IMG/VR virus record: IMGVR_UViG_3300033388_007730
Span: 155,189-219,188 of that record
Length of the DNA stretch: 64,000 nt
Direction: 5' to 3' (one strand)
Source of the DNA: a virus
Within the stretch, counting starts at the first letter, position 1. Each line of letters opens with the position of its first letter. A program made the position numbers and the translations under genes. Of the stretch, positions 23,738 to 51,799 are shown piece after piece. The notes under the pieces are model-generated. The model made no database searches and was not told the origin of the DNA. It worked only from the letters and a program-made list of their open reading frames with translations.

Positions 23738-24571
23738 ATGATTTATAGTAGAATATGCCCTCAGTGTAAAAAAGAAATAAAATATAAACACAAGGGGACT
23801 TGGAAGAGATTAGAGAAAAAGGGGTCTTTTTGTTTTAATTGTACTCGTAAAAATTTATGTAAGACAGATGAACAAAAAAAACAGATGGCTTCTCATTTTG
23901 GAGAACCTCGTAGAGGAAGGGATAATCCTTTTTATGGGAAAAAGCATTCTGATAAAACTAAGGCTATTTTAGCGAAAAAGTGCAGGAGGGTCGGGAAAGA
24001 GTGCGGGATGTATGGTAGATCTTTTTATGATATTTGGTTGGAAAAATATGGTAAAAAAGAAGCTAATAAAAAGATGGTTGAATTTAAAAAGAAACAGTCA
24101 ATACTTCATTCTGGTAAAAATAATCCTATGTATGGCAAACCTTCTCCTCAAGGATCTGGGAACGGTTGGAGTGGATGGTATAAAGGATGGTACTTTAGGA
24201 GTTTGAGAGAATTATCTTATGTCATAAATTATTTAGAAAAGAATAATTTAGAATGGATATCTGCTGAGAAGAAAAAGTTTTCAATACCATACAAAGATTA
24301 TGATGGAACAGAGAGAACTTACCGTCCTGATTTTTTTGTTGAAAATAGCATATTAGTAGAAATTAAACCCAACAGATTAAAAAAAGCTGTAACAAATAAT
24401 TTAAAAAAAGCGGCAGCAGAAAAATTTTGTAAAAAAAATAATTATAAATATGAAGTGGTAGAACCTAAGAGAATGAAAGATAAGCAAATAGCCGATTTGT
24501 ATAAGAAAAAGAAGATAAAATTTTTAGATAGATATGAGAAAAAATTTAAAGAAAGATATTTAAATGAGTAA
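23738..24571 (+). CDS. NUMOD3/PD-(D/E)xK homing endonuclease
   Basis: 277 residues. N-terminal zinc ribbon (CPQCKKE ... FCFNCTR), then NUMOD3-type DNA-binding repeats (NPFYGKKHSDKTKA, NNPMYGKPSPQGSG). A nuclease domain follows, FRSLRELSYV ... YRPDFFVENSILVEIKP, whose PD...ExK arrangement gives the catalytic residues. A close relative lies at 47939, between the halves of the split AAA+ gene. Free-standing mobile gene overlapping the start of the downstream kinase by eight bases. Confidence 0.85.
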   Translation: MIYSRICPQCKKEIKYKHKGTWKRLEKKGSFCFNCTRKNLCKTDEQKKQMASHFGEPRRGRDNPFYGKKHSDKTKAILAKKCRRVGKECGMYGRSFYDIWLEKYGKKEANKKMVEFKKKQSILHSGKNNPMYGKPSPQGSGNGWSGWYKGWYFRSLRELSYVINYLEKNNLEWISAEKKKFSIPYKDYDGTERTYRPDFFVENSILVEIKPNRLKKAVTNNLKKAAAEKFCKKNNYKYEVVEPKRMKDKQIADLYKKKKIKFLDRYEKKFKERYLNE

Positions 24572-25118
24572 GAGGATAAGACGCATAAATTTAATTTCTG
24601 GTCCTGGAAGTGGAAAAAGTATTACTGCTACTAACATAAGAGCACAACTTGGTTTTAGAGGTTATGACATTGAGCTTGTTAATGAGGTGATTAAGGATTG
24701 GACATATATTCCGAGAATACCTACTAGTTGTGATGGTTTTTTTCTTCAGGCTTCTCAAGTAGAAAAAGAAGATATAAGATTGAGGGCGGGAGTCGAACTC
24801 ATTGTTAGCGACTCCCCTTTGATGCTCCAATATTTCTATGCTAAATGGCATAATGCTCCGTTACAAAAGCCTATGCTTCAAGCAGCTTTAGAGTTTGAGA
24901 AAATGTATCCTTCTATCCATATTTCTATGCAGCGTAATGATGAATTTTATTCAGAAGTAGGAAGATATGAAAAATTAGAAGAAGCTAAAGAGATTGATAA
25001 AGCTATTGAACAGGTTTTATTTAATAATGGTATAGACTATATTCCTTTTTCGTGCCTAGATCAAGATGGACTTATCAATGCTATAGTTTCAATAATAGGA
25101 GATAAAAATGTTGTTTGA
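24564..25118 (+). CDS. P-loop ATPase/kinase, AAA_28-like
   Basis: 184 residues. INLISGPGSGKSITATN is Walker A; VELIVSDSPLMLQYFY is a Walker B-like strand with DS; LVNEVIKDW follows as in NadR-like and phage nucleoside-kinase-like ATPases. A nucleotide or nucleoside kinase role fits the neighbouring dCMP deaminase. The homing endonuclease sits immediately upstream. Confidence 0.7.
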   Translation: MSKRIRRINLISGPGSGKSITATNIRAQLGFRGYDIELVNEVIKDWTYIPRIPTSCDGFFLQASQVEKEDIRLRAGVELIVSDSPLMLQYFYAKWHNAPLQKPMLQAALEFEKMYPSIHISMQRNDEFYSEVGRYEKLEEAKEIDKAIEQVLFNNGIDYIPFSCLDQDGLINAIVSIIGDKNVV

Positions 25119-26007: not shown

Positions 26008-28380
26008 ATGGAAGATATAAATATCAAATCATTATTACAAGGTGGAATTCGTAAAGATCCAGAAGATGATAGAGATTTTATTTTTACAACACCACATATT
26101 CCTGATCATACTGTCTTGGGAAGTGCTGATTCTATTCCATTAAAAATAGATCATTCTAATAAGATGGGTTCGGTTAAGTTTCAAGGTGCGTTAGGATGCC
26201 ATGATATTAGAACAGAAATACTTACAGAAAAAGGTTGGAAACTATTTAAAGATTTGGATAAAGAAGAAAAAGTAGCTACCGTTAATCCTAATACCCATGA
26301 AATTGAATATCAAGAGCCAATTAATTATTTAGAATATGATTATGAAGGAGATATGTATTATTTTCACCATAAAAGTGGATTAGATGCTATGGTTACTCCT
26401 AATCATAAGATGTATGTCAAGAAATGGGATAATAAAAATATGACATTAAAAGAAGAATTTGAATTCATTGAAGCACAAAATATGGGTTGGTATTCTGGAT
26501 TGTTGACAAAAATTGATTGGGATGGGATCTCTCCCAAAACAATGAAAATGCCAGATGTTGAGATAGGACAAAGAAATGGAAGCAAAAAACAATCTATAAG
26601 AATAGGTAAAGAAATTGATACTACTAATTTCATTACATTTTTGGGATTATATTTAGCAGAGGGCTGTTGTTATCGTCCTGAGGGTAGTGGATCTTACAGA
26701 ATTGAGATCGCCGCTAGTGACAATAATGATAGGAAAAATGAAGTTATTGAAATTATTGATGATTTGCCGTATAAATATACTATTTATCATGATAGGATAA
26801 CAATATGGAATAAATCTTTATATACATTTCTTAAGCCTTTTGGGAATGTTTATACTAAGTCAGTACCAAGATTTGTTATGGATTTGAATAAAAAGGATAT
26901 CGCTGCATTTATGTATGGTTATTATTTAGGAGATGGATCTTTTCATGATAATGGGGCAAGGACAGGGTATTCGGTATCTGAACATTTAATTGATGATCTT
27001 CAAGAACTATCTTTGAAAATAGGGGTATATAGTAGGAAAAAAAGTAGATCACCTAGAATTGCATATATTAAAGGTAGAAAAATTTTTGGTAAAGAAAGTT
27101 ATGAACTTCATGAAAGACAAATAGATACGAAGTTGTCGATAGATAGAAATAAATATTCATCCAAAGTTCCATATAATAATAAAGTATATTGTGTAGAAGT
27201 CCCTAATCACATACTTATTACTAGAAGGGGTGGTTGTATTCTAATTTCTGGCAATTCGTGCGTAGCGTTTGCAGCTTGTGCTTTAAAAGAGTGGCAAGAA
27301 ACAATAGAACATGAAAAGGAAGTTTTGGCAGGGAAAAAAGATCATAGAGAAGGTAAAGAATATAATTTGTCTGAACAGTGGATTTATTGGAATTGTAAAA
27401 AAATAGATCCATGGCCTAATTCTGAAGGAACAAATCTGAGATCAGCTATGAGAGTATTAAATAAGATTGGAGTTCCTACCGAACAAGCTTGGGGTTACAC
27501 TGATGATAAGGTGAACATTGGTGAACCTGAAAGCTGGGCATATATGATAGCAAGGTGGAATTTAATAGGGTCTTATTGGAGAATATCAGGATTAGATCAA
27601 ATTAAAAAAGCATTGATCGAGAGTCCTATTATTATTGGGATGGCTTGTTTTAGAGAAATGTATGGTAATTTAGAACATGGTTTAATACCTTATCCTGCTA
27701 ATCCTGGAGAAGTAATGTCTCATCATGCTGTTTGTGTTGTTGGTTATGATGAAGAGAAAAAACTCTTAAAATTTAAAAATAGTTGGTCTAAGTTCTGGGG
27801 AGATGTTGGTTATGGATATATACCTTATGATTATGTAAGAGATTTTGTATGGGATGCGTGGATTGCTAGAGATATTAGTGTAACTCATGAAATGCTTGAA
27901 GGTACTAGATTATTGGTAGGTGCAGATGTACCAACAGTAATAGAGATAGCTGAGACACCACTTATACAAAAAGATACAGAAGAGAATTTTTCTTTTGTAG
28001 GATTTAAGTATCCTTCTCTTTTAGATACTTTTTCTATTATTAAAGATATTTTTGGAGTTCCAGAAATAGAGATATTTAGAGCTTCTAAAAAGGTGGGAGT
28101 TAAATTAGAAGATTCTTCATCTATTAACTTATTCTGTAAAAAATATTTTGCTGAGTTTAGAAAAGAATCTGTAAAGAAATATGGATTTGAAGTCGATGTT
28201 ATTAAAGTGGATGATGAATATCCAATTATTGGTATTTGTTTGTGTGAAAAAGAAATTAGTGATAAATTTGATGAAAATCAGATAAAGATAGAAGATGTAA
28301 TGAAAAAAGTGGTTGGCATGAGAGATATATTGGCTCTTGGCAAAGATATAATAATTTACAATGGTGTGAGAAAATATTAA
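26008..28380 (+). CDS. Papain-like (C1) peptidase interrupted by a LAGLIDADG intein
   Basis: 790 residues. Extein 1-63 and 417-790 join as FQGALG + SCVAFAACALKEW, giving the papain QGxxGSC active-site motif. The catalytic His is in MSHHAVCVVGYD and Asn in FKNSWSKFWGDVGYG. A C-terminal ~150-residue region is unrecognised. The intein occupies residues 64-416. No signal peptide. Possible roles are prohead-type processing or attack on host proteins. Activity requires intein removal, since the intein separates the nucleophile from its preceding Gly. Confidence 0.9.
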   Translation: MEDINIKSLLQGGIRKDPEDDRDFIFTTPHIPDHTVLGSADSIPLKIDHSNKMGSVKFQGALGCHDIRTEILTEKGWKLFKDLDKEEKVATVNPNTHEIEYQEPINYLEYDYEGDMYYFHHKSGLDAMVTPNHKMYVKKWDNKNMTLKEEFEFIEAQNMGWYSGLLTKIDWDGISPKTMKMPDVEIGQRNGSKKQSIRIGKEIDTTNFITFLGLYLAEGCCYRPEGSGSYRIEIAASDNNDRKNEVIEIIDDLPYKYTIYHDRITIWNKSLYTFLKPFGNVYTKSVPRFVMDLNKKDIAAFMYGYYLGDGSFHDNGARTGYSVSEHLIDDLQELSLKIGVYSRKKSRSPRIAYIKGRKIFGKESYELHERQIDTKLSIDRNKYSSKVPYNNKVYCVEVPNHILITRRGGCILISGNSCVAFAACALKEWQETIEHEKEVLAGKKDHREGKEYNLSEQWIYWNCKKIDPWPNSEGTNLRSAMRVLNKIGVPTEQAWGYTDDKVNIGEPESWAYMIARWNLIGSYWRISGLDQIKKALIESPIIIGMACFREMYGNLEHGLIPYPANPGEVMSHHAVCVVGYDEEKKLLKFKNSWSKFWGDVGYGYIPYDYVRDFVWDAWIARDISVTHEMLEGTRLLVGADVPTVIEIAETPLIQKDTEENFSFVGFKYPSLLDTFSIIKDIFGVPEIEIFRASKKVGVKLEDSSSINLFCKKYFAEFRKESVKKYGFEVDVIKVDDEYPIIGICLCEKEISDKFDENQIKIEDVMKKVVGMRDILALGKDIIIYNGVRKY
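26197..27255 (+). mobile_element. Full-length intein with LAGLIDADG endonuclease
   Basis: 353 residues. Begins Cys (CHDIRTEILTEKGW, block A), block B around DAMVTPNHKMYV, endonuclease motifs FLGLYLAEGC and YGYYLGDGS, then block F/G CVEVPNHILITRRGG ending SGN before Ser+1. The usual penultimate His is Gly. Inserted directly before the peptidase nucleophile Cys. Confidence 0.92.
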
Positions 28381-40296: not shown

Positions 40297-41097
40297 ATGA
40301 GTAGTAGTTTAATTATACAAGTTAGTGAAATTAAAGACGTAAGAAATCATCCAAATGCTGATAGACTTGATATTATCTCTATTAAAGGTAAAGGATGGGA
40401 GACAATTGTTAAGAGAGATGAGTATAAGGTAGGAGATGTAGTTATTTATATTCCCACAGATGTTATTCTTCCTCTTGAATTGGTAGAGAAGCTTGGGATT
40501 GCGAATTACTTAGCTGGAAAGCAGAAGAATAGAGTTAAGTGCGCAAGACTCCGTGGTGAGATGTCTTATGGTTTGGTTATTCCTAATGAAAAGAATTGGG
40601 AAGTAGGACGAGATGTTGCGGCAGAATTGGGTATTGTAAAATACGAGCCTCCTGTCAGAGCTATGGCTGGTGACGCTGCTCCAGAGGATTCAACTTTTCA
40701 TCGTTATACTGATATTGAGAATATCAATAACTTTCCTGATATTTTCAAAGATGGTGAGATGGTTGTTGCTACAGAAAAAATTGATGGATGTTTTAGATAT
40801 GATCAAAAGGTTTCTCTTGTCAACGGAGAGCAAATTTCTATCTCAGAAGTTGAGATTGGAGATATGGTTCTTTCTTATGATGAAAAAGAGGGCGAATTTG
40901 TGGCATCTAAAGTTGAGGATGTTATTATTCAAAATGTCTCTAAACAATGGGTAGAATTATCGTTTGATAATGGAAAAGAAATTGTTTGTACTGCTGATCA
41001 TTTATTCTTAACTAAGAACAGAAGATGGGTAGAGGCTGGTGATCTGGAAGAAGAAGATGAATTAGTTACGATGGATGAAGAATTTGAAAATAAATAA
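40297..41097 (+). CDS. DRB0094-type RNA ligase, N-terminal half plus N-intein
   Basis: 266 residues. N-extein 1-164: OB-like domain (VSEIKDVRNHPNADRLDIIS, VGDVVIYIPTD) as in DRB0094/Rnl5 ligases, ending ATEKIDG, the first four residues of motif I (KxDG). Residue 165 is Cys, beginning a 102-residue N-intein (block A CFRYDQKVSLVNGE, block B VCTADHLFLTKN) that stops at 41097. The C-half is encoded at 41243. Protein trans-splicing would yield KIDG-SNNRVGF, a perfect motif I. Confidence 0.9.
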   Translation: MSSSLIIQVSEIKDVRNHPNADRLDIISIKGKGWETIVKRDEYKVGDVVIYIPTDVILPLELVEKLGIANYLAGKQKNRVKCARLRGEMSYGLVIPNEKNWEVGRDVAAELGIVKYEPPVRAMAGDAAPEDSTFHRYTDIENINNFPDIFKDGEMVVATEKIDGCFRYDQKVSLVNGEQISISEVEIGDMVLSYDEKEGEFVASKVEDVIIQNVSKQWVELSFDNGKEIVCTADHLFLTKNRRWVEAGDLEEEDELVTMDEEFENK

Positions 41098-41100
41098 GAG

Positions 41101-41156
41101 AATAATCTCTACTGGTTAGAATATATATAGAAAGAGTTAAGCCAGTGGAGATTATT
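41101..41156 (+). repeat. Stem-loop between split-intein halves
   Basis: AATAATCTCTACTGGTT (41101-41117) pairs with AAGCCAGTGGAGATTATT (41139-41156), about 17 bp in RNA with two G-U pairs, starting four bases after the N-half stop. No T run follows, so not a terminator. A 34-codon frame (41179-41283, ending EIDKKKAARTKL) lies after it and overlaps the C-half; it may be residue of a lost insert. Confidence 0.75.
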
Positions 41157-41242
41157 ATGGTAAAAAACAATTAAATCTATGTTTAGAATATGGGAAAAAG
41201 ATATAAAAAAAGATTTAATGTCACAGATCGAAAGGATTAGAA

Positions 41243-41971
41243 GTGAAATTGATAAGAAAAAGGCTGCTCGAACAAAGTTATAAGTGCTGGGATCTAATTA
41301 TTGAAGGAGATCATCATAATTATTTAGTGGAGGGTGCGGTTGTTCATAACAGCAATAATAGGGTAGGTTTTGAGATTTCAGAGCCAGATCAGGATGGAAG
41401 TGTTTATGTTGAAATGAAAGCTGGTTCTAATAAGTTGAAGAGAAAACGTCCTCCAACAGAAAAAATGGCAGAGAATATTTATTGGTTTTCTCAATCTCTT
41501 GACTCTGTGAAGGGGTTACTCAATCATCTTGCTGAAGATGTTGGAGTTAAAAAGACTGTCGTTCTTTATGGTGAGGTTTATGGCAGAGTTCGTGGTGGTC
41601 ATAAGTCTCTTCATTATGGAAAGCCTGGAACTTTGAACTTTGCAGCATTTAGTTTGAAGATTGATGGTAAGTATGTTTCTTGGGATGTTTTTAAACGTCT
41701 GTGTGAGATTTTTGATGTACCTACTGTCCCTGTTGTTGGTATTTTTCCATTTAGCATGGAAAGAGCAAGAGAGTTAGCAACTGGTGATTCTCTTCTTGCA
41801 GCTAAGAATGGCACAAAGCATATGAGAGAAGGAATTGTTCTTTGTGCTTTTGAAGAGAGAGATGAAATGAAGACCAGGAGAGCTATTTTAAAGATGCTTA
41901 ATCCTGATTACCTTATCCTTAAAAATAAGAGTTATGCTAAGGGTGAGGCTACTGATTTTACAGATATGTAA
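41243..41971 (+). CDS. DRB0094-type RNA ligase, C-intein plus C-terminal half
   Basis: 242 residues from GTG 41243 (AAAGGA six bases upstream). Residues 1-36 are a C-intein: CWDLIIEGDHHNYLVEGAVV then HN (blocks F/G). Ser37 begins the C-extein SNNRVGFEI, followed by ligase motifs GEVYG (III), REGIVLCAF (IV) and LILKNKS (V). The break matches canonical split-intein geometry. The spliced enzyme would seal RNA ends in tRNA/RNA repair. A terminator follows. Confidence 0.9.
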   Translation: MKLIRKRLLEQSYKCWDLIIEGDHHNYLVEGAVVHNSNNRVGFEISEPDQDGSVYVEMKAGSNKLKRKRPPTEKMAENIYWFSQSLDSVKGLLNHLAEDVGVKKTVVLYGEVYGRVRGGHKSLHYGKPGTLNFAAFSLKIDGKYVSWDVFKRLCEIFDVPTVPVVGIFPFSMERARELATGDSLLAAKNGTKHMREGIVLCAFEERDEMKTRRAILKMLNPDYLILKNKSYAKGEATDFTDM

Positions 41972-46895: not shown

Positions 46896-47894
46896 ATGAA
46901 TACAGTTTATAGAGTATCGAGTAACGGGGGAGCACCAGCAAGGGCATCAGTACATAAAGTGTTAGATGGTAGTTCTGGAACACCAATACTCACTTCACCT
47001 GTTGAGAGAAAGAGTGTTGGAGTGGGAGCTTTAAAAGAAGCAGAAAAAATCTGTGATTATCACGATGATGGTGGTGATGAGGATGAGGATTGTTATGCTA
47101 ATCCAACTGGAATTGAAGATAGTTGTTTAAATGAAGATAATGATGTTGCTACTGTGAAGTTTGCGGAAGAGATAAAAGTAGATTTCATTCCGACCGTGGA
47201 TTTTAGAATAATGTGTAGATTTCTTGAAGCTAGTTCTGTTAATGATATTAAAAATCACCCATTCTCTGCCCCACCACTCATAACATTAATCCTCATGGAG
47301 GCATTACCTGGATATATGAAATCAAAAGATTATTCTTTTGCAGGAGAATTAAATTTTGATTGTCATGGTAATTCTATTCCACCAGAAAAAAATCCATGGA
47401 TAGTAGATGGGAAAGAGACAGCATTCACGATTCAAGGATTTTTGTATTTTGAATCTAATAGTGGCAAAAAAGAAGACAATGTTTGTTTCTTCTTATTCGC
47501 AGATTTAGAAAGAGGTGGTGCAGCCATAACATGTTATACTAGAGATGTTTTTAAATCTAAAACTGTTATAGGAGAGTTGCAGGAATATTCAAAGAGTCAT
47601 AATTGCTTGAGAGGTGCTAAGCTTAAAGATGTTAATATGTTCACTGCCTCTTTTACTGAGGTTGATAATTGCCCATCATATAACTGGGAAAATTATTATT
47701 ATCCAAAAAGTATAATTAATTTGTTTGACTTAGAAGTTTTTGAGTTTGTTAAAAACTCTGAGAGATATAATGAGTGTGGCATAACAAAGCGTGGTCTCAT
47801 TATGCATGGTAAACCAGGTTGTGTTTTGTCAGATACAAAAATAAAAATTAGAAAAAAGAAAAAAGAAGGAAAACATAATATTATTATAGAATAA
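46896..47894 (+). CDS. AAA+ ATPase N-terminal half plus short N-intein
   Basis: 332 residues. Residues 1-308 are the N-extein, including a beta-rich domain and KRGLIMHGKPG, the first part of Walker A. Then a 24-residue N-intein starts CVLSDTKIKIRKKKK (block A) and stops. The C-half at 48837 begins with a C-intein and then TGKTTIGN. Trans-splicing gives HGKPGTGKTT, a complete GxPGTGKT. Short N-inteins of about 25 residues are known from atypically split phage inteins (AceL-TerL type). Confidence 0.9.
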   Translation: MNTVYRVSSNGGAPARASVHKVLDGSSGTPILTSPVERKSVGVGALKEAEKICDYHDDGGDEDEDCYANPTGIEDSCLNEDNDVATVKFAEEIKVDFIPTVDFRIMCRFLEASSVNDIKNHPFSAPPLITLILMEALPGYMKSKDYSFAGELNFDCHGNSIPPEKNPWIVDGKETAFTIQGFLYFESNSGKKEDNVCFFLFADLERGGAAITCYTRDVFKSKTVIGELQEYSKSHNCLRGAKLKDVNMFTASFTEVDNCPSYNWENYYYPKSIINLFDLEVFEFVKNSERYNECGITKRGLIMHGKPGCVLSDTKIKIRKKKKEGKHNIIIE

Positions 47895-47938
47895 TAGTAT
47901 AGTCCAATTACGGGTAATCCACAAAGGAGAATGCTATT

Positions 47939-48853
47939 ATGAAAAAAGAAATGTTTTTGAGAAATTGTCCTAAATGTGGCAAAGAATTAAGTTATACAAA
48001 TAAGAAAAATAGAAATACCGCTATTAAAAAGAAGAGGCTTTGTGGATCTTGTGCTTCGGTGGAGAGGAATCAGAAATATGGTAACAATAAAAAATTTATA
48101 GAAACATATGGGGTAAAAGGGAAGTGGATAGGTAAAAAAAATCCTTTCTATGGGAAACATCATTCTGAAGAATCTCTTGCAAAAATGCAAAAAAATAAAG
48201 ATTTTAGCACTTTTAAAAGTAAAAAGTTTAAAGATAAGATGTCCAAAATATCTTCTGGTAAAAATAATCCTATGTATGGGAAAAATTATTATGATATATG
48301 GGTAGAAAAATACGGGGAGAAAGAAGCCAATAAAAAAATGGCGATACTTAGGAAAGAGAAATCTATTCAGACTTCCGGCAAAAATAATCCTATGTATGGG
48401 AAACCAGCACCACAAGGGTCAGGAAATGGATGGAGTGGGTGGTATAAAGGATGGTTCTTCAGAAGCATTAAAGAATTGTCTTATATGGTAAATGTTATTG
48501 AAGTGAATGGATTTCAGTGGAGAACAGGAGAAACAAAAGATTTATGTATAAAGTATACTAGCTATGATGGGACGGAAAGAACTTATAGGGCAGATTTTTT
48601 AGTCGAGGAGAAAAAGTTAGTTGAAGTGAAACCTATAAAATTGTTTAATACCCCAAAAAATTTATTAAAAAAACAAGCAGCTGTTAAATTTTGTAAAAAA
48701 AATGGTTATGATTATGAGGTAGTTGATGTAAGATTGTTAGATTTTGAAAAAATGGAGAGTCTTTATAATCAAAAAAAGATTAGATTTACGAAAAAATATA
48801 AAAAAAAATATGAGCAATACATAAATAGGAGAAAAAATGATGGAGATAAGTGA
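47939..48853 (+). CDS. NUMOD3/PD-(D/E)xK homing endonuclease between split-gene halves
   Basis: 304 residues. Zinc ribbon (CPKCGKELSY ... LCGSCASVE), NUMOD3-like repeats (NPFYGKHHSEESLAKMQ, NNPMYGKNYYDIW, NNPMYGKPAPQGSGNG), then FRSIKELSYM ... YRADFLVEEKKLVEVKP nuclease core. Paralogous along its length to the 23738 protein, but PD is AD here, so activity needs testing. Position inside a fractured gene matches the known split-intein/endonuclease arrangement. Overlaps the C-half by 17 bases. Confidence 0.88.
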   Translation: MKKEMFLRNCPKCGKELSYTNKKNRNTAIKKKRLCGSCASVERNQKYGNNKKFIETYGVKGKWIGKKNPFYGKHHSEESLAKMQKNKDFSTFKSKKFKDKMSKISSGKNNPMYGKNYYDIWVEKYGEKEANKKMAILRKEKSIQTSGKNNPMYGKPAPQGSGNGWSGWYKGWFFRSIKELSYMVNVIEVNGFQWRTGETKDLCIKYTSYDGTERTYRADFLVEEKKLVEVKPIKLFNTPKNLLKKQAAVKFCKKNGYDYEVVDVRLLDFEKMESLYNQKKIRFTKKYKKKYEQYINRRKNDGDK

Positions 48854-49853
48854 ACAAAAAGTTGTAGCTATTAGTGATTTTTTTAATCTTGTAGAGGACG
48901 AAGGTGGGATTTATGAAGTAGAAACTCCTCAAGGATGGGTAGAAATAGGAGATTTAGTCAAAAAGTCTAATAAAGAATGTTATGCTTTATTAACTGATAA
49001 TTATAATGAAATTAGAGGATCTAATGATCATTATGTGGAGACTAAAAGAGGGTGGGTAAAATTAGAAGATATAGATGTTAAGAATGATATTGTTTATACC
49101 GATGAAGGAGAAGAATTAGTAGTCTCTTTAGAAAGTATTGGAGTTCATGATACATTTGATTTAGAAGTTTTAAATGATGAGCATAAATACTATGCCAATG
49201 GAATTGTTAGCCATAATACAGGAAAAACAACAATTGGTAATATCATTTGTAATATGATACCAGATCATACCGTTATATGGATAACTCCTGAAATTTTAGC
49301 GGAGAATATGCATCGTGCTTTTAATTCTATTAAGTCATTATATAAATTGGCAGATTTTGTTTCTCCTTGTGTTATTATACTTGAGGATTTAGATTTATTT
49401 GGCAATGATCGAGACAAAGGTGGAGATATATTATCTCTTGGTGCTTTGATGAATGTTTTAGATGGTGTCAATTCTATTAAAAACGCTGTTACAATAGGAA
49501 CTACTAATAGATTAAGTTCCATTGAATCAGCTTTGAAGAATAGACCAGGAAGGTTTGACAGAGTTATAGAAATACCAGCACTTCCGAAAGAATTGAGAAA
49601 GAAGATGTTCAGAGATAGATTAAAAGGATGGACTGTTGAAAAGGGTGCATTGGATTATATCGTTGAGAACACTAATAAATGGACTGGAGCAGAAGCACAA
49701 GAATTTATCAATAGTTTGAATTTGAAACATATTGGCAGTAATAAGAAAAAGAAGAAAGTTACTATAGTGTGGGCAGAAGAGATTATCAAAACTATGAATA
49801 AATTTGGAGTGGGAGAAGCAAGTAGTTCATTCGGATTCGGTGCTGATAAATGA
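48837..49853 (+). CDS. AAA+ ATPase C-terminal half with long C-intein
   Basis: 338 residues. Residues 1-127 are the C-intein: YEVETPQGWVEIGDL, SNDHYVETKRGWVKL (block B), then HDTFDLEVLNDEHKYYANGI ending SHN. Thr128 begins the C-extein TGKTTIGNIICNM, with Walker B VIILEDLDL, sensor 1 VTIGTTNR, arginine finger region KNRPGRFDRVIEIP, then the lid domain. BCS1/FtsH-like AAA+ pattern. The intact ATPase needs splicing of both chains. The N-terminal domain of the other half is unrecognised, so the target is unknown. Confidence 0.92.
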   Translation: MMEISEQKVVAISDFFNLVEDEGGIYEVETPQGWVEIGDLVKKSNKECYALLTDNYNEIRGSNDHYVETKRGWVKLEDIDVKNDIVYTDEGEELVVSLESIGVHDTFDLEVLNDEHKYYANGIVSHNTGKTTIGNIICNMIPDHTVIWITPEILAENMHRAFNSIKSLYKLADFVSPCVIILEDLDLFGNDRDKGGDILSLGALMNVLDGVNSIKNAVTIGTTNRLSSIESALKNRPGRFDRVIEIPALPKELRKKMFRDRLKGWTVEKGALDYIVENTNKWTGAEAQEFINSLNLKHIGSNKKKKKVTIVWAEEIIKTMNKFGVGEASSSFGFGADK

Positions 49854-49956
49854 AGTAGCGATAAGGACTTATAAAAAAATTTAAGAAAAAAAAAGGATTT
49901 TGTCTTTTTTCATAGTATGTGTATTCAATATTTTTTAATATTTTTTGAAAAAAGTA

Positions 49957-49984
49957 TTGACATTTTGGAATAATATGTTATAAT
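49957..49984 (+). promoter_or_regulatory. Promoter for Ro60 gene
   Basis: TTGACA at 49957, 16-bp spacer, TATAAT at 49979; 75-base leader with GGGAGGA before ATG 50060. The rest of 49854-50059 shows no gene and no obvious Y RNA. Confidence 0.9.
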
Positions 49985-50059
49985 ACTTGAATAACATATT
50001 GTAAAGTTGTTATAAAGTATCTAAATTTTTAATTAGGTTGATTTTAGGGAGGATCAAAA

Positions 50060-51799
50060 ATGAGTAAGTATGCAAGTAATGTAACAAATCCACGTACACC
50101 ACAAAGCAAAAAAGCTAAGAGTAGTCAAGTTAAGAATAATGCTGGAGGATATGTATTCCAGGTTGATGATTGGACTCGTCTTAATCGTTTCCTTATTCTT
50201 GGTAATGAGGGAGGATCTTATTACGCTTCAGAGAATGAGATGTCTAATGATAACTATGATGTCATTAAGAGGTGTATGGCATTGGATAGTAAGAGAACAG
50301 TTGACACTATTGTTCAAATCAGTGATGAGGGTAGAGGTATCAAAAATGCCCCAGCTGTATTTGCTCTTGCTGTTTGTAGCGTATTCGGAGATCAGCAAAC
50401 AAGGTCTTATGCTAATAAGGTGATGCCAAAAGTAGCTAGGTATTCTACCGATCTATTCTCATGGGTAGATGCAGTTAATATTCTTAAAGAAGGACGTAAG
50501 GGTAAAGGAATGCTTCGAGCTATCGGAAGATGGTATACAGAGAAAGATGCTAATAATCTGGCATATCAAATCTGTAAATATCCATCACGTTCTATCGGTG
50601 GTCATAAGTGGGGTCACGCTGACCTGCTTCGTCTAGCTAGAATTTCTCCACCTGCTGCTAATGGTAAACCAGCTAAAGGTGGAAAGGCTTTAACTCTTCC
50701 ATCTGATGATCATGGTATTCTTTTGAAGTACGCTGTACATGGAGTTACATCTCCTCAAGAAATTGATGAGAGAGCTAAGTTAGCAGAGTCTACTGGTAAG
50801 GCACAAGAGAAAGCTGGTATTACTTCTGAGCAACTGGATGGGTTGAAGGATACCCCTTTGAAATATGTATATGCTCATGAGATGTGTAAGAAGGCTAATA
50901 CAGCAAATAAGGTAGTTGCGGTTATTAAGAAATATAAAGTTTCTAGAGAGTCTGTTGCTCCAAATCTAAGGAACGATAAAAAAGTTCAAAGGGCTTTATT
51001 GCCAAGTATGCCTATGACAGCTTTAATTAGGAACCTTGGTGGAATGACTGCTTCTGGTTTGTTGAAGCCATTGTCAGATGAGACTGCGATTGTTATTGAC
51101 AAGATTAGTAATAAAGAGAATCTTAAGAAAGGTCGTATTCATCCTATGAGCGTTTTGCTTGCTATGAAAGTTTATGAGCAAGGACATGGAATGAGAACTA
51201 GTTGGGAGCCAGTTCCACAAATCATAGATGCTCTTGAGAATAGTTTTTACGCAGCATTTAATTACGTAGAGCCAACAGGTAAGAAGTATTTACTTGGCAT
51301 TGATGTTAGTGGGTCTATGGATTGGGACAAGTTGTCTGAGAAAGTTCCAATGACTTCTGCTCAGTGTGCTGCTGCGGTAGCAATGACAATCGCTAGAACA
51401 GAGAAGAATTATCAAATGATGGCTTTTACTAGTATTTTCAAGAAATTGAATATCACAGCAAAAGACAGATTGGGAACAGTTCTTCGCAAGACTAGTGGTA
51501 TGGCTTTCGGCAGTACAGATTGTTCATTGCCAATGCAATATGCTAGCAAGCACGAACTTGATGTTGATGCTTTTGTTGTTCTTACAGATAGTGAGACTTG
51601 GTTTGGTGGAGTCCATCCATTTCAGGCTCTGAAGAGCTACAGGAGAAAGTTCAACAAAAATGCTAAGCTTATTGTTCTAGCATTCGAGGCAAATAGATTT
51701 AGTATTGCTGATCCAAGTGATGCTGGCATGATGGATATTGTAGGTATGGATAGTAATGTACCACGGATTCTATCAGAATTTGTCTCAGGGAAGCTTTAA
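50060..51799 (+). CDS. Ro60 / TROVE-domain RNA-binding protein
   Basis: 579 residues. TROVE features: FLILGNEGGSYYASENEMS near the N-terminus, then HEAT-like helices (APAVFALAVCSVFGDQ, GKGMLRAIGRWY, WGHADLLRLARI). The C-terminal vWA-like domain has YLLGIDVSGSMDWDK (DxSxS MIDAS) and DAFVVLTDSETW. Ro60 binds Y RNAs and misfolded RNAs and works with PNPase in bacteria; phage copies exist in some mycobacteriophages. Strong promoter, leader and richer codon use suggest high expression. Confidence 0.95.
   Translation: MSKYASNVTNPRTPQSKKAKSSQVKNNAGGYVFQVDDWTRLNRFLILGNEGGSYYASENEMSNDNYDVIKRCMALDSKRTVDTIVQISDEGRGIKNAPAVFALAVCSVFGDQQTRSYANKVMPKVARYSTDLFSWVDAVNILKEGRKGKGMLRAIGRWYTEKDANNLAYQICKYPSRSIGGHKWGHADLLRLARISPPAANGKPAKGGKALTLPSDDHGILLKYAVHGVTSPQEIDERAKLAESTGKAQEKAGITSEQLDGLKDTPLKYVYAHEMCKKANTANKVVAVIKKYKVSRESVAPNLRNDKKVQRALLPSMPMTALIRNLGGMTASGLLKPLSDETAIVIDKISNKENLKKGRIHPMSVLLAMKVYEQGHGMRTSWEPVPQIIDALENSFYAAFNYVEPTGKKYLLGIDVSGSMDWDKLSEKVPMTSAQCAAAVAMTIARTEKNYQMMAFTSIFKKLNITAKDRLGTVLRKTSGMAFGSTDCSLPMQYASKHELDVDAFVVLTDSETWFGGVHPFQALKSYRRKFNKNAKLIVLAFEANRFSIADPSDAGMMDIVGMDSNVPRILSEFVSGKL

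What the first reader, a model, noticed from the sequence alone, without database searches (positions are those of the whole stretch)
46896..49853. AAA+ ATPase broken inside Walker A by an atypically split intein with a homing endonuclease between the halves
The N-half ends HGKPG plus a 24-residue N-intein; the C-half starts with a 127-residue C-intein followed by TGKTTIGN. Splicing recreates GKPGTGKTT. The endonuclease gene lies in the gap. This is the 'fractured gene' layout described by Dassa and colleagues (2009), with the rare short-N-intein geometry of AceL-TerL. ATPase activity would depend wholly on trans-splicing.
Basis: partly seen in the sequence, partly recalled or inferred. Interest (0 to 1): 0.8.

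Follow-up and report, generated by a model that had tools for sequence, protein, structure and literature searches.

The report
Phage ATPase split by mobile intein
A large phage makes one of its motor proteins as two separate pieces, cut through the ATP-binding loop, that a split self-splicing element should join after translation, and the DNA-cutting gene that probably spreads this element sits between them; relatives of that cutting gene turn up beside ATP-binding-loop genes again and again, with different ways of keeping the target gene working.

Summary
Confirmed. Window 46896-49853 encodes an AAA ATPase in two ORFs broken inside Walker A (HGKPG | 24-aa IntN, then 127-aa IntC | TGKTTIGN), with a homing-endonuclease gene between them. 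A 297-kb relative (L005) has the same gene uninterrupted (HGRPG|CGKTTIGN): an exact empty site. No unsplit copy exists in the 219-kb record.

By sequence and fold the intein belongs with VidaL (6vgv), not AceL-TerL, and short-IntN splits proved common in phage contigs. The endonuclease is a NUMOD3 + TnsA-like PD-(D/E)XK enzyme, apparently not the Vsr-like family I recall for fractured genes. The element occurs in five other AAA genes at the same Walker A codon: IntC 46-60% identical, exteins only 20-27%, so it moved between non-orthologous genes. Empty, split with nuclease, split with nuclease relic, and re-fused stages all occur.

The nuclease family sits beside Walker A genes (23 of 25 within 400 nt; 1.7% of control positions). 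Beside kinases it accompanies a hairpin plus in-frame stop or shift inside Walker A, absent from 76 of 76 nuclease-free homologues: a candidate natural ribosomal stop-hop. Trans-splicing and hopping are inferred, not shown.

The parts
46896..47819 (+). N-extein of the AAA ATPase (308 aa), ends ...LIMHGKPG
   Evidence: translation; 54% identical to the matching part of the uninterrupted L005 protein
47820..47891 (+). IntN, 24 aa, CVLSDTKIKIRKKKKEGKHNIIIE; ORF ends with stop at 47892-47894
   Evidence: pattern C-V-x(3)-T-K-I-(K/R)-(I/V)-(R/K)-K shared by L050-L054 at the same site, 50-70% identical
47891..47940 (+). RNA hairpin that would hide the ribosome-binding site and AUG of the nuclease gene
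   Evidence: fold z -3.7 here, -4.8 in L009, -3.4 in L053; same AAUAAU...AUUAUG arm design in all three
47939..48853 (+). putative homing endonuclease, 304 aa: zinc ribbon, three NUMOD3 repeats, TnsA-like PD-(D/E)XK nuclease domain
   Evidence: Pfam NUMOD3 2.3e-15, Tn7_TnsA-like_N 5.7e-6; D219, E229, K231 invariant in 17 relatives; AF2 pLDDT 82, best PDB fold TnsA 1t0f
48837..49217 (+). IntC, 127 aa, ends ...YYANGIVSHN; its start overlaps the end of the nuclease gene by 17 nt
   Evidence: VidaL 6vgv by sequence E 2.4e-9 and fold TM 0.80; H65, H126, N127 invariant in the subfamily
49218..49850 (+). C-extein of the AAA ATPase (211 aa), begins TGKTTIGN (Thr at +1); stop 49851-49853
   Evidence: Pfam AAA 2.5e-16; 69% identical to L005

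Best explanation
A phage AAA ATPase gene has been invaded, exactly at the Walker A codons G-x-P-G | (T/C)-G-K, by a mobile unit made of a VidaL-type split intein and a free-standing TnsA-like/NUMOD3 homing endonuclease. The two halves are translated separately; the intein halves associate, Cys1 and Thr+1 drive trans-splicing, and GKPG-TGKTT is restored. The endonuclease, whose start is held in an RNA hairpin, cuts intein-free Walker A coding DNA, and repair copies the unit in. Shown here: anatomy, intact catalytic residues, empty site, recurrence at the same codon in unrelated AAA genes, nuclease decay series, association of the nuclease family with Walker A genes. Inferred: splicing, ATPase dependence on splicing, DNA target and cleavage.
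For: Exact empty site in L005, with the same downstream TROVE gene. All intein motifs intact: Cys1, S-x-D-H, penultimate His, Asn, Thr+1. VidaL is the top match by sequence and structure. Same site in L050, L051/L009, L052, L053, L054; IntC 46-60% identical to the window's while exteins are 20-27%, which points to transfer of the element rather than descent with the gene. Nuclease present in window, L009 and L053; relics in L050 (E 5e-18), L052 (E 7e-10) and fused inside L054 (about 2e-6). Selection still acts: dN 0.29 against saturated dS for IntC, 0.22 against 1.63 for the C-extein. Nuclease-gene hairpin in three loci.
Against: No splicing was measured. The record is a virus contig of unknown completeness. 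The IntN tail (about 7 residues past VidaL's IntN end) has no counterpart in VidaL. IntN is too short for family statistics. The nuclease target is inferred from position only.
Confidence: 0.9

Rival explanations
1. The gap is a group I intron carrying the nuclease, so the intein is whole after RNA splicing and only cis-splices.
For: A TATAGTCC motif after the IntN stop resembles the 3' part of phage introns; NUMOD3 nucleases are often intron-borne (general knowledge).
Against: No Rfam intron match in the window even at E 10 or at gathering level in L009 and other nuclease loci. The motif is the 5' arm of a hairpin over the nuclease start. The IntN tail is conserved as protein in six loci. L050 and L052 keep split halves after losing most of the gap.
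Confidence: 0.03
2. A dead, decaying insertion: the halves no longer splice and the ATPase is lost.
For: No experimental splicing; split genes can be relics.
Against: All catalytic residues kept; dN far below dS for exteins, IntC and nuclease; AAA, Walker B and RPGRFD motifs intact; the nuclease ORF is intact and start-controlled.
Confidence: 0.05
3. The intein is an AceL-TerL relative (S2 split) rather than VidaL-type (S1).
For: 24-aa IntN is close to AceL's 25 aa; a TerL locus (L079) is found by the same profile.
Against: IntC starts where VidaL's starts and VidaL is the best sequence and fold match; L079 is only 29% identical, E 4e-5.
Confidence: 0.1

Closest known systems
VidaL split intein (PDB 6vgv)
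   Same: Fold and sequence of IntC, short IntN, IntC start position, insertion in a Walker A motif (VidaL-type sequences L055-L078 sit in UvsX-like genes at GESG | SGKS)
   Different: IntN 24 against 16 aa, Thr/Cys rather than Ser at +1, AAA rather than UvsX host gene, TnsA-like nuclease instead of a roughly 360-420-aa nuclease-like ORF of another type
Fractured genes (Dassa et al. 2009, NAR; paper not held, cited from memory and from reference lists)
   Same: Enzyme gene broken by a split intein with a free-standing nuclease gene in the gap, control element brought in with the nuclease, phage setting
   Different: Nuclease is NUMOD3 + TnsA-like PD-(D/E)XK; AAA ATPase host genes; relic and re-fused stages seen
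AceL-TerL / GOS-TerL atypical split inteins
   Same: Short IntN, P-loop host gene
   Different: Split site (S2), insertion at GK|S/T of terminase, lower similarity
I-Bth0305I (EDxHD / Vsr-like homing endonuclease, 3r3p)
   Same: Same broad nuclease fold class; next-best fold match after TnsA
   Different: TnsA is the better fold match; motif here is D-x(9)-E-x-K with NUMOD3 repeats and a zinc ribbon
T4 gene 60 / homing-endonuclease bypass arrangement (PMC5009743)
   Same: For the kinase relatives only: nuclease next to an insert with a stop after the take-off codon and an RNA hairpin
   Different: Gap of 2-4 nt instead of 50, Walker A target, many loci

Membership tests
Split intein (trans-splicing) | IntN and IntC on separate ORFs flanking the two parts of one conserved protein | tested here: met
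Split intein (trans-splicing) | Catalytic residues Cys1, block B His, terminal His-Asn, nucleophile at +1 | tested here: met
Split intein (trans-splicing) | HINT fold | tested here: met
   AF2 model of C-ORF, best PDB hit VidaL TM 0.80
Split intein (trans-splicing) | Splicing activity | not testable with these tools
   needs co-expression
VidaL-type atypical split intein | S1 split: IntC begins right after the first two strands | tested here: met
   IntC residue 6 aligns with VidaL residue 22; IntN has a tail of about 7 extra residues
VidaL-type atypical split intein | Groups with VidaL in a tree of inteins | not tested
   ranking by phmmer and Foldseek only
Fractured gene (Dassa 2009) | Nuclease ORF between the two split-intein halves | tested here: met
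   window, L009, L053
Fractured gene (Dassa 2009) | Vsr-related (EDxHD) nuclease, in about half of the published loci (from memory; not required of all) | tested here: not met
   TnsA-like PD-(D/E)XK + NUMOD3
Homing endonuclease | Nuclease domain with intact catalytic residues and DNA-binding motifs | tested here: met
Homing endonuclease | Insertion-free alleles at the same site | tested here: met
   L005 empty AAA site; 76 of 76 nuclease-free kinase loci intact
Homing endonuclease | Cuts the empty site | not testable with these tools
   needs protein
AceL-TerL-type split intein | S2 split after the first helix, terminase host | tested here: not met

The most novel reading that the evidence does not exclude
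One nuclease family specialises in Walker A coding DNA of many P-loop genes, and its insertions are tolerated by at least two unrelated tricks: protein trans-splicing in AAA genes (this window) and ribosomes hopping over a stop codon in kinase genes. In the kinases the peptidyl-tRNA on CCN would re-pair 2-4 nt downstream, just before GGN, restoring RGVP-GSGK; this would be the first natural in-frame stop hop.
Probability: 0.5. Interest if true: 0.9.

Novelty: new variant of a known kind. Interest (0 to 1): 0.68.

Why it matters
The layout is known, but here one can see the homing cycle in one family (empty, split with nuclease, nuclease relic, re-fused) and a mobile element that jumped between unrelated AAA genes because they share the same few Walker A codons. 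It offers new short-IntN split inteins for protein labelling, a nuclease family with an apparently motif-level target, and, through the kinase relatives, a testable candidate for natural stop-hopping: the 2016 recoding review states that no natural in-frame case is known (PMC5009743).

Tried and rejected
Group I intron in the gap: Rfam negative, motif explained by a hairpin. IntC hits L002-L004/L006-L008 (33%, residues 20-85): short local matches with no intein end, set aside. Isolate phages: no match for the N-extein or nuclease; C-extein finds only distant AAA/FtsH-like genes. Bacterial and archaeal genomes: no relative of this IntC subfamily. Pfam gives nothing for the N-extein or for the nuclease-like ORFs of the VidaL-type loci, so 'Vsr-like' for those rests on eye only. 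Stop readthrough for the kinase loci: would leave two extra residues in the P-loop and cannot fix the out-of-frame cases L010, L037, L038, L040. Dead kinases: median dN/dS 0.20 against 0.175 for intact ones.

Full report
OBSERVATION. The window is bases 155189-219188 of a 219,188-base virus record. The three ORFs are as described. N-ORF 46896-47894: 308-aa extein ending MHGKPG, then the 24-aa IntN CVLSDTKIKIRKKKKEGKHNIIIE and a double stop. Nuclease ORF 47939-48853. C-ORF 48837-49853: 127-aa IntC ending SHN, then TGKTTIGN and a Pfam AAA domain (E 2.5e-16). In the frame of the halves the gap holds 21 stops.

EMPTY SITE. A search with the N-extein found one close relative, L005, on a 297,710-base virus contig. 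There the gene is one 535-aa ORF, HGRPG|CGKTTIGN, 60% identical over the joined exteins, with nothing missing or added at the junction. The next gene downstream, a TROVE/Ro60-vWA protein, is also the same. In the window's own record no unsplit copy exists: the L005 protein finds only the two halves and one distant AAA at 23% identity.

THE INTEIN. The best solved relative of IntC is VidaL (6vgv), by sequence (E 2.4e-9) and by an AlphaFold model of the C-ORF (TM 0.80 on the target, 1.4 A; the model as a whole is moderate, mean pLDDT 69, but about 70-95 over the intein). IntC residue 6 pairs with VidaL residue 22, so IntC starts at about VidaL residue 17, the S1 split; VidaL's IntN is 16 aa and AceL-TerL's 25 aa with an S2 split (PMC13014065). 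The 24-aa IntN here corresponds to VidaL's IntN plus a tail of about 7 residues. A profile search found 23 VidaL-type loci at Walker A of UvsX-like genes and one in a helicase-like gene; a wider profile showed that 39 of 43 phage IntC loci examined open only 85-148 aa before the splice site, so short-IntN splits are common in phages.

THE SAME ELEMENT ELSEWHERE. Five other AAA loci carry the close subfamily at the same codon. L009/L051 and L053 have split halves with the nuclease gene between them. L050 and L052 have split halves with only 123-144 nt between them, which encode the C-terminal end of the same nuclease in a broken state (blastp E 5e-18 and 7e-10). L054 has one continuous ORF in which IntN runs into a piece of the nuclease active site (YSPDFIVDGKVLVEVKPK) and then IntC. 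IntC identity to the window is 46-60%, but the host ATPases are only 20-27% identical to the window's in both exteins, and only L005, which lacks the intein, is orthologous (54% and 69%). The simplest reading is transfer of the element between non-orthologous AAA genes that share the Walker A codons. DNA at the junctions is of the form GGN-NNN-CCN-GGN | (ACA/TGY)-GGN-AAR.

THE NUCLEASE. Pfam gives NUMOD3 repeats and Tn7_TnsA-like_N. In 17 relatives the D, E and K of a PD-(D/E)XK site are invariant and two CxxC pairs are nearly so. The AlphaFold model (pLDDT 82) matches TnsA best (Foldseek probability 1.00, though E only 0.018) and the homing endonuclease I-Bth0305I next (0.87). Its start codon and ribosome-binding site lie in a hairpin with z scores of -3.7, -4.8 and -3.4 in the three loci that keep the gene, as expected for a gene whose expression is delayed or limited. 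The IntC start codon overlaps the nuclease end by 17 nt.

WALKER A PREFERENCE OF THE NUCLEASE FAMILY. Of 25 nuclease loci checked, 19 have a P-loop coding sequence within 150 nt of a nuclease-gene end and 23 within 400 nt, against 0.7% and 1.7% of control positions. The window carries a second member at 23738-24571, whose end overlaps the start of a P-loop kinase gene (24564-25118), and L005's genome has the same pair. Loci were found by nuclease similarity and many are related, so they are not 25 independent events.

KINASE RELATIVES. In most other loci the nuclease lies next to a small P-loop kinase whose Walker A reads ...RGVP, stop, one codon, GSGK (TGA, TAA or TAG), preceded by a hairpin. 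Gaps of 2 or 4 nt occur in L010, L037, L038 and L040. In 80 kinase homologues, 76 had no nuclease nearby and all 76 are intact at this point; the 4 with the nuclease are all interrupted. The hairpin has 90% of cells paired; percentage paired and covariation score exceed all 500 shuffles, cells with two-sided change exceed 499, and every slid control scores lower (the sequences are related and partly coding, so this is not a probability, and only 3 pairs have two-sided changes). The interrupted kinases still evolve under constraint (median dN/dS 0.20 against 0.175 for intact ones). A hop from the CCN codon to the codon before GGN restores RGVP-GSGK in every case; readthrough does not. The 2016 recoding review says no natural in-frame stop hop is known and ties the T4 gene 60 bypass to a homing endonuclease (PMC5009743). 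This is inference from sequence and needs a reporter test.

MECHANISM. Shown: anatomy, motifs, empty site, recurrence, decay series, association with Walker A genes. Inferred: the halves trans-splice; each half alone lacks a complete P-loop and so should not work as an ATPase; the nuclease cuts empty Walker A DNA and repair installs the unit; the unit protects its own site by interrupting it.

VERDICT. A real fractured gene, a new variant of a known kind: VidaL-type split intein paired with a TnsA-like/NUMOD3 nuclease in AAA ATPases. I searched the held library for prior description of this pairing and found none, but the 2009 paper itself and most subscription literature are not held.

Noticed in passing
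L015-L045, L010, L037 (kinase next to nuclease), e.g. L036 3860-3930 minus strand: Kinase Walker A interrupted by a stop or shift after CCN, with a covarying hairpin just upstream; absent from 76 of 76 nuclease-free homologues. Candidate natural ribosomal stop-hop cassette.
   Followed up: partly
window 23738-25118: Second nuclease of the same family (50% identical) whose end overlaps the start of a P-loop kinase gene (AAA_28); same pair in L005's genome.
   Followed up: partly
window 40297-41971: RNA ligase split by a second, canonically split intein at its KIDG|S active-site motif (about 100-aa IntN, about 36-aa IntC); the 145-nt gap has an AATAAT...ATTATTATG hairpin like that of the AAA locus but no nuclease.
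   Followed up: partly
window 26008-28380: Papain-like cysteine peptidase interrupted by a contiguous intein with a LAGLIDADG domain next to the catalytic Cys.
   Followed up: no
L051, L052, L054 C-exteins: A second intein at Walker B (APC...HNC-ILWxDE) in the same AAA genes; in L054 only its start is on the contig.
   Followed up: no
L163 (LR756500.1): Huge-phage PhoH-like gene fractured at Walker A (GKAG | TGKT) by a related IntC, with a different nuclease-like ORF in the gap.
   Followed up: partly
L046 3655-4700: Start fragment MKLIIIEDGDRVE* before the nuclease and intact MKLIVIEGGDRLGKST after it: the target kinase seems to have been given a second start.
   Followed up: no
window 46896-51799 and L005 5938-9722: AAA ATPase followed by a TROVE/Ro60-vWA gene in both genomes; an AAA plus vWA pair recalls RavA-ViaA-like partnerships (from memory).
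   Followed up: no
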